Notes under the pieces: model-generated
Seen by the model: the letters and a program-made list of their open reading frames with translations, nothing else
The model's database searches: none
What the model was told of the DNA's origin: nothing
Origin: Cellulophaga fucicola
GTDB lineage: Bacteria; Bacteroidota; Bacteroidia; Flavobacteriales; Flavobacteriaceae
Assembly: GCF_900119145.1 (NCBI RefSeq)
Contig: NZ_FPIY01000005.1
Span: 1-64,000 of the forward strand
Direction of reading: 5' to 3'
Length of the DNA stretch: 64,000 nt
Made by a program: the position numbers and the translations under genes
Part shown: one piece after another, positions 20,049 to 25,239 of the stretch
Layout: each line of letters starts with the position of its first letter
How positions within the stretch are numbered: position 1 is the stretch's first letter

Positions 20049-20846
20049 TTAATTTTTTACTTTAAACTCACTAATTTTATCAAAAGACGCTACAATTCCT
20101 CTAATTAAAGAAGAGCTAAGTCCTTGGTGTTCCATCTCATTTAAGCCTTTAATTGTACAGCCCATTGGTGTGGTAACACGATCTATTTCTTGTTCTGGAT
20201 GGTTGCCAGATTCTATTAGTAGACTAGCAGCACCATTACACGTATACATAGCTAATTCTTGTGCTTCTTTAGCATCAAAGCCCAGTTGTATTGCTCCTTG
20301 TGTGGTAGCGCGTATTAAACGCATCCAAAAGGCAATTCCGCTTGCGCAAATAACAGTTGCTGCTTGCATTTGACTCTCTGGAATTTCTAAAGAATGTCCC
20401 ATTCTATTAAAAATAGCTTTGGCTAAATCTATACGTTTTTTACCCATAGTATTACTGCAAATACAAGTCATAGATTGGCCAACAGAAATAGCCGTATTAG
20501 GCATACTCCTAATAATATAAGTTTCTTTGCCAACTACAGCTTCAATCTTTTTTATGCTAAAACCAGTTATGGTAGATATAACAATGTGCTTTTCTGTAAG
20601 CAAATCTTTTGCATCATTTAAAATACCTTCAAAATGATCTGGTTGTACAGCAAATATTAAAATATCAGAGTTTTGTACAGCTTCTCTGTTGTTAGCTGTA
20701 ACTGTAACATTTCCATAATTCTCAAACTCTTTAATACTATCTGTATTTCTTTTTGTTAAATACATAGTAGTAGCACCGTTAGAGTTTAAAATACCTTTGG
20801 CAATAGACAGTCCTAAGTTTCCTGCACCTATAATAGCTAGTTTCAT
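20049..20846 (-). CDS. proC: Pyrroline-5-carboxylate reductase
   Basis: 265 residues. An N-terminal Rossmann motif IGAGNLGLSIAKGIL is followed by IRSMPNTAISVGQSMT and the family's C-terminal signature VTTPMGCTIKGLNEME. It reduces pyrroline-5-carboxylate to proline. Its location inside the arginine operon links proline formation to arginine supply; an alternative role on an arginine intermediate is possible, since it lies between argC and argD. Confidence 0.9.
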   Translation of the reverse strand: MKLAIIGAGNLGLSIAKGILNSNGATTMYLTKRNTDSIKEFENYGNVTVTANNREAVQNSDILIFAVQPDHFEGILNDAKDLLTEKHIVISTITGFSIKKIEAVVGKETYIIRSMPNTAISVGQSMTCICSNTMGKKRIDLAKAIFNRMGHSLEIPESQMQAATVICASGIAFWMRLIRATTQGAIQLGFDAKEAQELAMYTCNGAASLLIESGNHPEQEIDRVTTPMGCTIKGLNEMEHQGLSSSLIRGIVASFDKISEFKVKN

Positions 20847-21848: not shown

Positions 21849-23037
21849 CTTTTAGATTTTTATTTACGTGATTATATATTTTACCAGCGTTAGCTAATAT
21901 TTTTATAAATCCTTTAGCGTCATCTGCTGTCCATCCTTTGTTCATTTCACCATAACTACCAAAAGAAGCATTCATAAGGTCGTGTTTAGATGCTATTCCG
22001 TTAAGCTCAAATCTGTATGGTTGTAGTGTAACAAAAACATCACCAGAAACATTTTTTTGCGTGTCTGCTAAAAATACTTCTATGTTACGCATAACTTCAT
22101 CTAGGTAATTACCTTCATGCAATAGCATGCCGTAAAAATTACCTTGTTGCTCTTTTTGGTATTGTTGCCACTTTGTTAGTGTGTGTTTTTCTAATAAATG
22201 GTGCGCTTTTATAATTATTAAAGATGCAGCAGCCTCAAAACCAACTCTACCTTTAATACCAATAATAGTATCGCCAACGTGTATGTCTCTACCAATAGCA
22301 AACAAAGAAGCAACTGTATTTAATTTTGTAATGTTGTTAATTGGTTTGTCTTCTTCACCATTAATAGCCGTTAACTCTCCTTTTGTAAAGGTTAATTTTA
22401 CATCTATAGGGTTTCTTTCTTCAAGCTGACTAGGATATGCTGTGTCTGGCAAAGGAGAGTGAGATGTGAGCGTTTCTTCGCCACCAACAGAAGTTCCCCA
22501 AAGCCCTTTGTTAATAGAGTATTTTGCTTTTTCCCATGGATAATCTACACCATTTTCTTTTAAGTATGCAATTTCTACCTCTCTAGACAACTGATTATCT
22601 CTAATAGGAGTAATAATTTCAATTTCTGGAGCAATGATTTGGAAGATCATATCAAACCTTACTTGATCGTTACCTGCACCAGTACTGCCGTGAGCAATAT
22701 ATTTTGCACCTACTTTTTTAGCGTAGTTTACAATTTCTATAGCTTGTACAATACGTTCTGCACTAACAGATAATGGGTAGGTGTTGTTTTTTAAAACATT
22801 CCCAAAAATTAGATATTTTACAACCTTTTTGTAAAATGTTTGTACAGCATCTATAGAAGTATAGCTTGTTGCACCTAATTCTATCGCTTTCTTTTTTATG
22901 TTGGCTATTTCTTCTTTAGAGAATCCGCCGGTGTTTACACTAACAGCGTGTACCTCAAAACCTTTGTCTTTTGATAAATATTTTGCGCAGTAAGACGTAT
23001 CTAAACCACCACTATATGCTAAAACTAATTTACTCAT
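21841..23037 (-). CDS. argG: Argininosuccinate synthase
   Basis: 398 residues, the normal length. The ATP-pyrophosphatase loop is LAYSGGLDTSYCAKYL (about 5-20), AHGSTGAGNDQVRF is the substrate site, and PLPDTAYPSQLEER is also present. It joins citrulline and aspartate. It overlaps both the acetyltransferase gene upstream (8 bp) and argC downstream (8 bp), so the first three genes are tightly coupled. Confidence 0.95.
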   Translation of the reverse strand: MSKLVLAYSGGLDTSYCAKYLSKDKGFEVHAVSVNTGGFSKEEIANIKKKAIELGATSYTSIDAVQTFYKKVVKYLIFGNVLKNNTYPLSVSAERIVQAIEIVNYAKKVGAKYIAHGSTGAGNDQVRFDMIFQIIAPEIEIITPIRDNQLSREVEIAYLKENGVDYPWEKAKYSINKGLWGTSVGGEETLTSHSPLPDTAYPSQLEERNPIDVKLTFTKGELTAINGEEDKPINNITKLNTVASLFAIGRDIHVGDTIIGIKGRVGFEAAASLIIIKAHHLLEKHTLTKWQQYQKEQQGNFYGMLLHEGNYLDEVMRNIEVFLADTQKNVSGDVFVTLQPYRFELNGIASKHDLMNASFGSYGEMNKGWTADDAKGFIKILANAGKIYNHVNKNLKDD

Positions 23038-23656
23038 CTTTATTTTTCTTTTTTAAGAACAAATGTTCTTTAATACTTTTTAATCTTTTAAATACTTTGC
23101 CGTCTACTTCTTTTTTATCGGTAGCTTTTGCCTTTGCAGCAGGATCATATAACATACCTGTACACAAACACATTTTTTGTTCTGTTCTGGTTAGAACGTC
23201 AAAATTTTTACAAGTTTGACATCCTTTCCAGAATTCAGGATCGTCTGTAAGTTCAGAAAATGTAACAGGTTTGTAACCAAGCTCGTAATTCATTTTCATA
23301 ACCGCTAAACCTGTAGTTATTCCGAATATTTTAGCTTCAGGAAATTTTTCTCTAGAGAGTTTAAAAATGTGTTCTTTAATTTGCTTGGCTAGCCCTAAAT
23401 TTCTGAAATCTGGGTGTACAATAAGACCAGAGTTGGCAACAAACTTATTGTGTCCCCAAACCTCTATGTAGCAGAAACCTGCAAATGTCTCTCCGTCTAA
23501 GGCAATAACGGCATTACCGTTTTGCAATCTTTTTTGGATATACTCTGGCGTACGCTTAGCAATACCTGTGCCGCGAACCTTAGCAGAATCTGTTATAGTA
23601 TCAGAAATTATCTGCGCATATTTAATATGCGATGCATTAGCAATTACAATTCTCAT
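23030..23656 (-). CDS. GNAT N-acetyltransferase, probable N-acetylglutamate synthase
   Basis: 208 residues. The GNAT acetyl-CoA loop is HPDFRNLGLAKQIKEHIF (about 88-105). The C-terminus carries a cysteine cluster (CQTCKNF, then KMCLCTG) not typical of ordinary GNAT enzymes, and a very basic tail. As first gene of an arg operon that otherwise lacks argA or argJ, it most likely supplies N-acetylglutamate. It is unlike E. coli ArgA because there is no kinase-like domain. Expression is probably governed by the leader at 23701-23830. Confidence 0.82.
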   Translation of the reverse strand: MRIVIANASHIKYAQIISDTITDSAKVRGTGIAKRTPEYIQKRLQNGNAVIALDGETFAGFCYIEVWGHNKFVANSGLIVHPDFRNLGLAKQIKEHIFKLSREKFPEAKIFGITTGLAVMKMNYELGYKPVTFSELTDDPEFWKGCQTCKNFDVLTRTEQKMCLCTGMLYDPAAKAKATDKKEVDGKVFKRLKSIKEHLFLKKKNKDE

Positions 23657-23700
23657 TGACTGTTGCTTTTTATGTTAATATTTTAAAATTTAATGTCTTG

Positions 23701-23729
23701 AAAAAACGGAACTGGACTCACCTAATTCC
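23701..23729 (-). terminator. Leader terminator of the arginine operon (attenuator)
   Basis: Read on the minus strand, GGAATT (23729-23724) pairs with AGTTCC (23713-23708). An inner GG/CC extends the stem past a bulged A, the loop is TGAGT, and G plus six T follow. It stands 44 bp before the first structural gene and 18 bp after the stop of the Arg-rich leader frame. TTGTTCC (23772-23766, inside the leader frame) can pair with the same GGAAT and so compete with the terminator. Confidence 0.75.
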
Positions 23730-23746
23730 AAAAGAAGTATATACCC

Positions 23747-23830
23747 TTACGGGCGGCGACGTGTAGGAACAAGCATAGCTAGGGGTGTAGAAACCCTGCT
23801 GGTAAATAATATGTTTGTGTTCTTGCTCAT
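23747..23830 (-). CDS. Candidate arginine leader peptide, 27 residues, with Arg-Arg-Arg near its end
   Basis: Minus-strand ATG at 23830, TAA at 23749-23747. The product starts MSKNTN, has a single Arg at 12, and ends VPTRRRP; residues 24-26 are encoded CGT CGC CGC. CGC is an uncommon Arg codon in this AT-rich sequence. The DNA is noticeably more GC-rich than its surroundings and folds locally: AGCAGGG pairs with CCCTAGCT inside the frame. A -7 box lies just upstream and an intrinsic terminator just downstream, followed by the complete arginine operon. Position, size, run of regulatory codons and terminator fit a ribosome-stalling attenuator peptide like those of trp, his or ilv operons. Confidence 0.72.
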   Translation of the reverse strand: MSKNTNILFTSRVSTPLAMLVPTRRRP

Positions 23831-23838
23831 TACAAGAT

Positions 23839-23846
23839 CAAATTTA
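23839..23846 (-). promoter_or_regulatory. -7 promoter element of the arginine operon leader
   Basis: TAAATTTG on the minus strand matches TAnnTTTG exactly. Transcription would start near 23832, leaving only a few bases before the leader ATG at 23830. A -33 TTTG is not clear (TTAG at about the right distance). Confidence 0.45.
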
Positions 23847-23865
23847 CAAATTATATTGAGCTGAC

Positions 23866-25239
23866 CTAATTTACTGTTTTATTTTTCGAAAAAAGTAGTT
23901 TTTGTTTGTTTAGCCTAAGTATTTCGTATAATATGTAGCCTAAAATTAAGGTATACTCAATTGTTAGTATTCCTAAATGCTCTGTAAAATCTGGATTAGA
24001 GTATGCCCAATAGCTTAGAAATACAGCAGCAGACCATAAAATAGCATATCTAAACCTAGTAAATAGACTAAGTATTACTAAAGAAATAATGTACCAAGGA
24101 TGCACTGTTGTAGAGATAAAGTAATAAATGGTAAGTACCCAAAGCATACTAGTGAATAAGCTAGTTACTGTTTTGTTGCTCTTTAAAAAGGAGAAAAGTA
24201 AAACAACAGTAATGGTTATATAGGGCGATATTTTACCAAATGCTCTTATGGTTTCCCAGTTTTTATTACCATTAAACTCGGCTATTTTTTTTATGATATT
24301 ATAAATACTGGCATTAAACTCAAAATTACTAAACCAGAGTCCTATTGTAGTGGCGTAGTTATTTATAAATTCTGATGAATAGAAAGGAAGTAGTAAAGCA
24401 AGTATTGTAATGCCTATTATTGTATAAAACTGAATAGCTTTTTTAAATCCTAAATGTCTTAAAAATAGAGGTAAAAATATAAGCGGCACTAACTTTACAG
24501 CGATAGAAAAGGCTAGGATGGGAGCTGCTAAAATATATTTTTTTAGACTGATGAGATACATACTCCAGATAAAGAAAAATAGCATTACACCTTCAAAATG
24601 AAGATTCCCTGTAAGTTCTATAATTACTAATGGGTTTAAAAAGTACCAAAATATTAAGTGTGATGATAAATTTAATTTTAAAAGTAATTTTCTTCCAAAG
24701 TATACAATGCCAATATCTGCTAAAATAATAATTAAGCGCATTGTAACAATGCCGCCAATGGCACTTTTGCCAGAAAACAAAGCTGCTAAAGCAAATAACA
24801 GTTGATTTAAAGGAGGGTAGTTGCTAAAGTTTTTTGCGCTAATTTCTCCCATGCTAGCATACATCTGTGCAGCATTTTCTATGAGAATAGTGCCTTCTTC
24901 TATTATAGTGTTTGGGGTCTGTAAATAGGGGTTTATGCCTTGTAAAACTAATTCTCCGTCCCAGATAAATCTATGAAAATCTTGAGAGAGCATTGGTGTT
25001 ACAAACAAAAAAACAAATCTAAACAGTATACCTGCAGTTAGCAGTAGTTTAAAATTCCATTTTTCAAACTGAATAAGCTTGTAACAAAGAAAAAATAGAG
25101 CTGCAGCAAGCGTAATAAGTTTTGGAAAGTCTGTACGATCTAAGTAATAAGCAAAAGTGTAATAAAAAAGTAGACTAGCAACAAGTAACAGTATAGGTAT
25201 TTTATGTAGCCTATAGTATGATAAAATTTTTACTAGCAT
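23866..25239 (-). CDS. GT-C-type membrane glycosyltransferase (mannosyltransferase-like)
   Basis: 457 residues with about eleven hydrophobic helices. The first periplasmic loop holds QDFHRFIWDGELVLQGINPY (about 84-103). This resembles the conserved catalytic-loop motif (Asp, Trp-Asp-Gly, Gly-x-Asn-Pro-Tyr) of DUF2029/GT87 and MptB-like polyprenyl-phosphate-sugar transferases. VHPWYIISLVI near the C-terminus is also typical. It would move a sugar from a lipid carrier onto an envelope acceptor. It is last in the redox/glycosyltransferase operon, 85 bp after the preceding gene. Confidence 0.78.
   Translation of the reverse strand: MLVKILSYYRLHKIPILLLVASLLFYYTFAYYLDRTDFPKLITLAAALFFLCYKLIQFEKWNFKLLLTAGILFRFVFLFVTPMLSQDFHRFIWDGELVLQGINPYLQTPNTIIEEGTILIENAAQMYASMGEISAKNFSNYPPLNQLLFALAALFSGKSAIGGIVTMRLIIILADIGIVYFGRKLLLKLNLSSHLIFWYFLNPLVIIELTGNLHFEGVMLFFFIWSMYLISLKKYILAAPILAFSIAVKLVPLIFLPLFLRHLGFKKAIQFYTIIGITILALLLPFYSSEFINNYATTIGLWFSNFEFNASIYNIIKKIAEFNGNKNWETIRAFGKISPYITITVVLLFSFLKSNKTVTSLFTSMLWVLTIYYFISTTVHPWYIISLVILSLFTRFRYAILWSAAVFLSYWAYSNPDFTEHLGILTIEYTLILGYILYEILRLNKQKLLFSKNKTVN

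What the first reader, a model, noticed from the sequence alone, without database searches (positions are those of the whole stretch)
23701..23846. Arginine leader peptide with an Arg-Arg-Arg stop-side run and a terminator ahead of the arg operon
Minus-strand 23830-23747 encodes 27 residues ending VPTRRRP, with codons CGT CGC CGC. A -7 box (TAAATTTG, 23846-23839) precedes it and a terminator hairpin with six T (23729-23701) follows it by 18 bp. The next gene starts the complete arginine operon. This is the design of translation-coupled attenuation. A competing pairing (TTGTTCC in the frame with GGAAT of the terminator) is visible, but I cannot decide which structure a ribosome stalled at the Arg codons would favour. 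I know of no described peptide-leader attenuator for arginine in Bacteroidota.
Basis: partly seen in the sequence, partly recalled or inferred. Interest (0 to 1): 0.9.

Follow-up and report, generated by a model that had tools for sequence, protein, structure and literature searches.

The report
Arginine-sensing leader with conserved RNA hairpins
In front of the arginine-making genes of many flavobacteria lies a tiny gene packed with arginine codons, followed by two unusually conserved RNA hairpins; together they look like a gauge for arginine supply, but not of the textbook kind that works through a transcription terminator.

Summary
In detail: a 27-codon frame ending CGT-CGC-CGC-CCG-TAA, just after a -7 box and ahead of an arg operon. 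It is not chance. Of 173 loci, 172 keep Arg-Pro-stop in frame, with three stop codons in use. Arg fills 216 of 909 codons at -4 to -12 (first genes: 814 of 20787), and 191 of these 216 are CGT/CGC where own-gene usage predicts 57. This supports an arginine leader peptide.

The terminator half is not supported. A T run of 5 or more follows the hairpin in 8 of 173 loci, and no covarying competing pairing was found. Conserved instead is an RNA element without an Rfam match: hairpin P1 holds the stop codon; hairpin P2 has a covarying stem and the top GGUGNGUCC. It was found in 232 of 397 sampled genomes of the family. At 171 of 172 loci checked it precedes this GNAT or argG.

Best reading: a ribosome held at Arg codons keeps P1 open; P1 and P2 then set operon expression by a step not yet known, perhaps Rho. 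New variant of a known kind.

The parts
23839..23846 (-). -7 promoter box TAAATTTG; 8 nt lie between it and the start codon, so the leader mRNA is probably leaderless (inference)
   Evidence: sequence. In 99 of 173 loci (49 of 101 non-redundant) a TAnnTTT[G/A] box lies 3-8 nt before an in-frame start, 83 of the 99 at 7-8 nt; 0 such cases in the two other frames. The other 74 loci do not fit that pattern. The TAnnTTTG consensus is recalled knowledge.
23747..23830 (-). leader peptide ORF, 27 codons, MSKNTNILFTSRVSTPLAMLVPTRRRP*
   Evidence: single-base codon changes in 24 independent pairs are synonymous in 50 of 118 against 25.7% expected, p 6e-5
23777..23800 (-). P0, hairpin inside the ORF
   Evidence: 99 of 101 leaders have a hairpin, 76 of the 99 ending about 16-33 nt before the last Arg codon; median -5.1 against -3.4 kcal/mol in 34 shuffled regions; cognate halves U1 x U2 z -8.4
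23753..23761 (-). three regulatory Arg codons CGT CGC CGC
23742..23755 (-). P1, CGCCC-GUAA-GGGU(G/A) hairpin made of the last Arg codon, the Pro codon, the stop codon (in the loop) and the bases after it
   Evidence: in the window fold it forms with probability 0.97-0.99 when no ribosome covers it and 0.00 with one at an Arg codon or the stop
23708..23729 (-). P2, covarying stem, 5'-side bulge, GG/CC, loop UGAGU
   Evidence: all 6 lower-stem pairs show changes on both sides, 98.6% of cells paired; cognate arms z -18.9 and -18.0; loop UGAGU 150, UGUGU 20, UGCGU 3 of 173; GG/CC to GA/UC change in L206 (by eye)
23701..23706 (-). run of six T after P2; not part of the conserved element
23657..23700 (-). 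unstructured G-poor spacer to the first gene
   Evidence: (over the relatives): G 7.0% against 15.3% in an upstream control; folds less than shuffled
23030..23656 (-). first operon gene, GNAT-like acetyltransferase
   Evidence: family call by eye; no NCBIfam match; this GNAT follows the element in 170 of 172 loci, another GNAT-like gene (by eye) in L141 and L154
14825..23037 (-). rest of the operon: argG, argC, proC, argD, N-acetylornithine carbamoyltransferase, argB, argE/dapE-like, argH
   Evidence: argG follows in 110 of the 110 loci holding at least 1400 nt after the element

Best explanation
This is a ribosome-read arginine sensor controlling the arg operon. A probably leaderless 27-codon frame is translated as soon as it is transcribed. 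Its CGT/CGC codons are read by tRNA-Arg(ACG). When charged tRNA-Arg is scarce the ribosome is held at these codons and keeps hairpin P1, built from the last Arg, Pro and stop codons, open. When arginine is plentiful the ribosome finishes and leaves, and P1 folds, 11-15 nt before P2. P1 and P2 folded together are the 'off' signal; P2 folds in both states and is the part that something recognises. The off step is not an intrinsic terminator in most species. I think premature termination by Rho on the G-poor stretch after P2 is most likely, with mRNA decay or a dedicated protein as alternatives. Shown by comparison: conserved frame, Arg codon enrichment and codon choice, P2 covariation, no conserved T run, no covarying antiterminator found, link to arg operons. 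Inferred: translation itself, direction of regulation, the P1 switch, and the output step.
For: Arg-Pro-stop in frame in 172 of 173 loci with three stop codons and three Pro codons in use. Frame open at least 22 codons before the last Arg codon in 173 of 173, against 71 and 42 of 173 for the two other frames. Arg at -4..-12: 216 of 909, against 50 and 30 of 909 in the other two frames and 814 of 20787 in first genes; CGT/CGC 191 of 216 where 57 are expected. Arg positions drift, so codons rather than fixed residues seem selected. A tRNA-Arg(ACG) gene is in the genome. P2 covaries. In the window fold P1 is the helix of the element that ribosome position changes. This GNAT or argG downstream at 171 of 172 loci.
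Against: No expression data. P1 is nearly invariant, so its pairing has little covariation support, and its 5' side is also coding. In this window Arg codons lie only at -2 to -4 in the last ten, so a ribosome at Arg codons and one at the stop codon both open P1; the two states then differ in duration only. The spacer is G-poor but not C-rich (C 16.6%), a weak Rho site at best. The constancy of the P2 top is unexplained by codon sensing. P1's 5' strand (CGCC) could pair with the P2 top (GGUG): mean duplex energy -6.5 kcal/mol, own against permuted partners z -2.6. Both sides are nearly constant, so that test cannot judge it, and one search does not model loop contacts; only L206 speaks against.
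Confidence: 0.7

Rival explanations
1. Textbook attenuation: P2 plus the T run is an intrinsic terminator, and a ribosome stalled at Arg codons favours a competing antiterminator.
For: P2 followed by six T in the window; five T visible after P2 in 3 of the 9 same-genus loci with P1 printed (the window's own included); leader frame with Arg codons; striking linker/P2-arm hairpins in single loci such as L035 and L018 (by eye).
Against: T run of 5 or more in 8 of 173; 5 or more T in the 8 nt after P2 in 5 of 101. 0 terminator-like sites in the window region. Linker x P2 arm not clearly better than shuffled linkers (mean difference -0.17, s.e. 0.11 kcal/mol; z 0.0). No other partner of P2 or linker stands out. 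P2 forms at 0.92-0.97 in each of five ribosome states folded for the window.
Confidence: 0.08
2. Nascent-peptide arrest: like TnaC or SpeFL, the peptide itself jams termination at Pro-stop when it senses free arginine or a relative of it, and the stalled ribosome acts downstream.
For: Arg-Pro-stop kept in 172 of 173. [quoted passage not shown] Mild selection on the peptide (50 of 118 synonymous).
Against: Apart from the last three residues the peptide drifts widely over 101 non-redundant leaders. The Arg-Pro codons are also P1 bases. The CGY codon choice (191 of 216) is not explained by a residue requirement.
Confidence: 0.13
3. A pure riboswitch or protein-binding RNA: P1-P2 bind arginine or a regulator and the frame is incidental.
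For: Constant P2 top on a covarying stem; one match in each matching genome listed; at arg operons in 171 of 172 loci.
Against: Frame, start position, stop codon swaps and Arg codon enrichment at drifting positions.
Confidence: 0.08

Closest known systems
speF leader orf34 / SpeFL of Salmonella and E. coli
   Same: Short upstream frame with tandem Arg codons that sense arginine, hairpins at and after the stop codon, no intrinsic terminator seen, Rho involved (passages of PMC6386406).
   Different: Controls ornithine decarboxylase, not arginine synthesis; start codon of speF at nucleotide 516; 3 leader peptides of the present kind have no Pfam match, DUF2618 included.
LEU element upstream of leuA in Actinobacteria
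   Different: Leucine; a pseudoknot, with the codon run pairing with the leuA Shine-Dalgarno box. Here no clear pairing with the first gene's start region is seen.
cys leader peptides of Mycobacterium
   Same: Runs of end-product codons near the stop codon without conserved terminator hairpins; Rho suggested (passages of PMC1262725).
   Different: Cysteine; no P1-P2 element mentioned in those passages.
ilvB-II motif of Corynebacterium
   Same: A conserved RNA motif that proved to be a leader-peptide attenuator (abstract of PMC10272879).
   Different: Branched-chain amino acids, transcription attenuation.
trp/his-type ribosome-mediated attenuators (recalled)
   Same: Regulatory codons of the end product in a leader peptide.
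   Different: No conserved terminator and no covarying antiterminator found here.
TnaC
   Same: Pro-stop end; Rho as effector (passages of PMC8429421).
   Different: Induced by Trp through fixed peptide residues; here most residues drift.

Membership tests
Ribosome-mediated transcription attenuator (trp/his type) | Leader frame with clustered codons of the operon's end product | tested here: met
   (translation itself inferred)
Ribosome-mediated transcription attenuator (trp/his type) | Intrinsic terminator before the first gene | tested here: not met
   T run of 5 or more in 8 of 173; 0 sites in window region
Ribosome-mediated transcription attenuator (trp/his type) | Mutually exclusive antiterminator | tested here: not met
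   a CGCC/GGUG contact between P1 and the P2 top could not be judged
Ribosome-mediated transcription attenuator (trp/his type) | Read-through changes with charged tRNA | not testable with these tools
   needs expression data
Leader peptide plus structured RNA (LEU element kind) | Codon run plus conserved covarying RNA fold upstream of the matching biosynthetic operon | tested here: met
Leader peptide plus structured RNA (LEU element kind) | Codon run pairs with the ribosome-binding region of the first gene | tested here: not met
   (P1 x RBS z -0.8, U2 x RBS z -0.3; U1 x RBS z -2.2 is the third most negative of 26 pairs)
SpeFL/orf34 (DUF2618) | DUF2618 sequence match | tested here: not met
   0 Pfam and 0 NCBIfam matches at E up to 1 for 3 leader peptides of this kind; short peptides are hard for HMMs
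Termination-arrest peptide (TnaC kind) | Conserved residues upstream of the last few | tested here: not met
   only the last three residues are near-invariant in 101 non-redundant leaders
Termination-arrest peptide (TnaC kind) | Pro as last residue before the stop codon | tested here: met
   172 of 173
Any Rfam family | Covariance model match | tested here: not met
   whole window at gathering: only a tRNA; 23660-23900 at E up to 5: only a weak snoRNA match; 8 loci at gathering: none

The most novel reading that the evidence does not exclude
A two-input arginine sensor: codon-reading by a ribosome (P1) coupled to an RNA hairpin (P2) that is itself specific for arginine, or for an unknown arginine-responsive factor or an RNA polymerase contact. 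Grounds: the P2 top is kept far beyond what folding needs, and P1-P2 was found once in each matching genome listed and at arg operons in 171 of 172 loci. The models and patterns used contain the Arg-Pro codons of P1, so versions at other operons with other codons could have been missed. Nothing here tests ligand or protein binding.
Probability: 0.25. Interest if true: 0.85.

Novelty: new variant of a known kind. Interest (0 to 1): 0.64.

Why it matters
How Bacteroidota tune amino-acid synthesis at the RNA level is little described, and no arginine leader-peptide attenuator of this phylum shows in the titles and abstract openings listed by the searches made (open-access papers only, lists capped). 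The element was found in 232 of 397 sampled genomes of a large family, is small, is easy to mutate, and has a constant hairpin top whose partner is unknown. It makes a direct question testable: how does a ribosome in a leader switch an operon without a terminator, in a phylum that does not rely on Shine-Dalgarno sites?

Tried and rejected
Linker pairing with the P2 5' arm as an antiterminator: striking in single loci (L035, L018) but not in general (mean energy difference to shuffled linkers -0.17, s.e. 0.11 kcal/mol; mean fraction of shuffles at least as good 0.56, many ties; z 0.0).

P1 as a mimic of the tRNA-Arg acceptor stem: the tRNA-Arg genes found among 30 of the genome's 32 tRNA matches (UCU, UCG, ACG) do not share its sequence.

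P1 5' strand pairing with the P2 top (CGCC with GGUG): not rejected, only disfavoured. L206 changes GG/CC to GA/UC and keeps CGCC (by eye), but the pairing is energetically possible elsewhere and cannot judge it. P2 top as a complement of the 16S 3' end: an idea from recall, noted, not tested.

Frameshift past the stop codon: rejected by eye, since the P1-P2 spacing varies by single bases (11-15 nt in 172 of 173).

A P2-only covariance model: alignment A4 put the bulge variants out of register, so no model was built from it. A pattern search in 13 genomes was used instead: 19 matches to TAGGTGWGTCC, 18 read (L284 gave no row). Nine have P1 and a stem of 5-7 bp, one in each of the 9 same-genus genomes; the other nine lack P1 and have 0-6 bp, L285 being the one with 6. 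Genes next to these were not checked.

Weak class-wide matches: 6 of the weaker ones were read (L089-L094) and look like coding or unrelated DNA; the rest were not read.

Full report
Observation. The minus-strand frame 23830-23747 encodes MSKNTNILFTSRVSTPLAMLVPTRRRP*. Eight bases separate the TAAATTTG box from its ATG, so the message is probably leaderless (inference). Downstream lie a GNAT-like gene, argG, argC, proC, argD, N-acetylornithine carbamoyltransferase, argB, an argE/dapE-like gene and argH. The nearest named relatives are Cellulophaga. On its own the RNA does not fold better than shuffles; the case rests on relatives.

Loci used. Searches found further loci by RNA model only. The set scored is 173: the window, L002-L081, L087, L088 and L116-L205; all 173 matched the P1-P2 expression used, so none was dropped. 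Of the 232 matching genomes I used the 30 best loci returned by the tool and fetched 60 of the weaker listed matches; the rest were not fetched. Species may occur in both collections, so a 101-member set was made by removing leaders at most 15% different over the last 16 codons.

The frame. Among the 80 GNAT loci, 78 passed a simple Arg-end filter; the two misses, L031 and L050, carry the same element with CRRP and YRRP ends. All 81 rows have an in-frame ATG 21-29 codons before the Pro codon. In 172 of 173 loci the frame ends Arg-Pro-stop, using TAA 158, TAG 13 and TGA 1, and CCG, CCT or CCC for Pro. The exception, L088, runs on as RRPLGA*. The frame is open for at least 22 codons before the last Arg codon in 173 of 173, the other frames in 71 and 42. 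Several clades seem to start with GTG or TTG at the same place (by eye); some rows have no clear ATG. A TAnnTTT[G/A] box 3-8 nt before an in-frame start was found in 99 of 173 loci, in 49 of the 101 non-redundant ones, and in none of the control frames. Single-base codon differences in 24 independent pairs of these are synonymous in 50 of 118, against 25.7% expected.

The codons point to arginine. Leaving out the last two Arg codons, which lie in or next to P1, Arg makes up 216 of 909 codons at -4 to -12, against 814 of 20787 in the first genes and 50 and 30 of 909 in the other two frames. CGT/CGC make up 191 of 216, where each locus's first gene predicts 57. In 12 genes of the window AGA is the commonest Arg codon (75 of 124). 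The positions drift between clades, as codon sensing allows and a fixed arrest motif would not.

The RNA element. P1 is CGCCC-N3/4-GG(G/C)(U/C), with the stop codon in its loop. P2 starts 11-15 nt later (172 of 173) and has a stem of 5-7 bp (171 of 173), a short 5' bulge ending in A as a rule, GG/CC and the loop UGNGU (UGAGU 150, UGUGU 20, UGCGU 3). In alignment A3 (93 sequences) all 6 lower-stem pairs of P2 show changes on both sides, 98.6% of cells are paired, and 0 of 500 shuffles reach the covariation score. A3 was fitted to the model, which leans towards its structure, and the shuffles do not keep relatedness. An alignment-free test agrees: P2 arms pair better with their own partner than with another locus's (z -18.9; -18.0). 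P1 is nearly invariant, 3 of its 5 pairs never varying, so its helix rests on constancy and energy rather than covariation. A third hairpin, P0, lies inside the frame (z -8.4).

Terminator and antiterminator. A T run of 5 or more within the 20 nt tested occurs in 8 of 173 loci, and 5 or more T in the 8 nt after P2 in 5 of 101. Of the 26 segment pairs only P2's arms and P0's halves stand out; next come U1 x RBS (z -2.2) and U1 x P2 (z -1.5), while the spacer and start region pair worse than permuted (z +4.4). P1's strands were added: the lowest value besides P2's own arms is P1 5' strand x P2 top (z -2.6, energy -6.5 against -6.4 permuted), which this test cannot judge because both sides hardly vary. 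Linker against P2 arm fails by itself. Folding the window RNA with blocked footprints gives P2 at 0.92-0.97 in five states; P1 goes from 0.97-0.99 with no ribosome over it to 0.00 with one at two Arg codons or the stop. Footprint size was my assumption, and loop contacts are not modelled. The spacer after P2 is unstructured and G-poor, which fits a Rho site loosely but also an ordinary A-rich start region.

Distribution. Family: 232 of 397 genomes at E up to 0.001, each matching row with one match; the family is Flavobacteriaceae by the named relatives. I searched for the GNAT in 28 genomes without a match, 20 of the 165 unmatched and 8: it is absent in 18 of the 20 and present in the other 2 and in all 8. 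Of the 10 with GNAT, L206 and L208 carry a diverged element by eye (L206's genome is matched by model R2), L215 a remnant, L207, L209 and L210 another leader, and L211-L214 nothing I could see. Order, model R2: 22 of 296, all in the same family. Class, model R1: 69 of 295 at E up to 1, of which the three below E 1e-4 are in the same family; stricter filters were in force, so diverged copies may be missed. Gene context: this GNAT in 170 of 172 loci; L141 has another GNAT-like gene and then argG; L154 has another GNAT-like gene and ends there; argG in 110 of 110 loci long enough.

Mechanism. See best explanation. What comparison shows is a conserved, CGY-rich arginine leader frame joined to a specific RNA element at arg operons. 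The P1 switch and the Rho output are inference. The arrest-peptide rival is the strongest, because Pro-stop is also how TnaC stalls.

Known work. Passages of PMC9723704 report 'strong clues' for leader-peptide attenuation at amino-acid operons in Flavobacterium psychrophilum; its one mention of arginine in the main text is about cyanophycin; leaderless mRNAs are 5.5% there. Its supplement was not read. PMC6386406, PMC1262725 and PMC8429421 were seen in passages, PMC10272879 as abstract and outline. In the titles and abstract openings listed (5 of 5 papers; 20 of 41; 15 of 32; 15 of 18; 10 of 152; 10 of 36) I saw no description of this element; subscription journals are mostly outside that library.

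Noticed in passing
L207, L209, L210, L247-L271: In an unnamed large genus of the family (g2, probably Flavobacterium, inferred) some arg GNAT genes are preceded by a different conserved leader, about M(N/K)xxSLHITSxSRxxxPxTSPEVRxL, with CGG Arg codons and a CUUCNCCCGAAG hairpin: pattern found in 23 of 61 genomes, one copy each (the pattern itself fixes the second CGG); a GNAT-like start follows in 22 of 25 loci printed. No Rfam match in L207, L209, L210; one such peptide has no Pfam or NCBIfam match.
   Followed up: partly
L088 1501-1573 and L215: Diverged leaders read RRPLGA* and RRRLLA*: the P1 loop no longer holds the stop codon, which lies a few codons downstream (by eye).
   Followed up: no
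L141, L154: The first gene after the element is a different GNAT-like gene, as if the presumed acetyltransferase had been replaced while the leader stayed.
   Followed up: no
window 23030-23656: The leading GNAT-like gene of the arg operon has no NCBIfam match at E up to 1e-10; it may be the acetylglutamate synthase of this family (inference).
   Followed up: no
L206, upstream of the GNAT: A second short frame ending LLRRR* right after a TATATTTG box lies further upstream of the same gene (by eye).
   Followed up: no
window 20049-20846: proC sits inside the arg operon between argC and argD.
   Followed up: no
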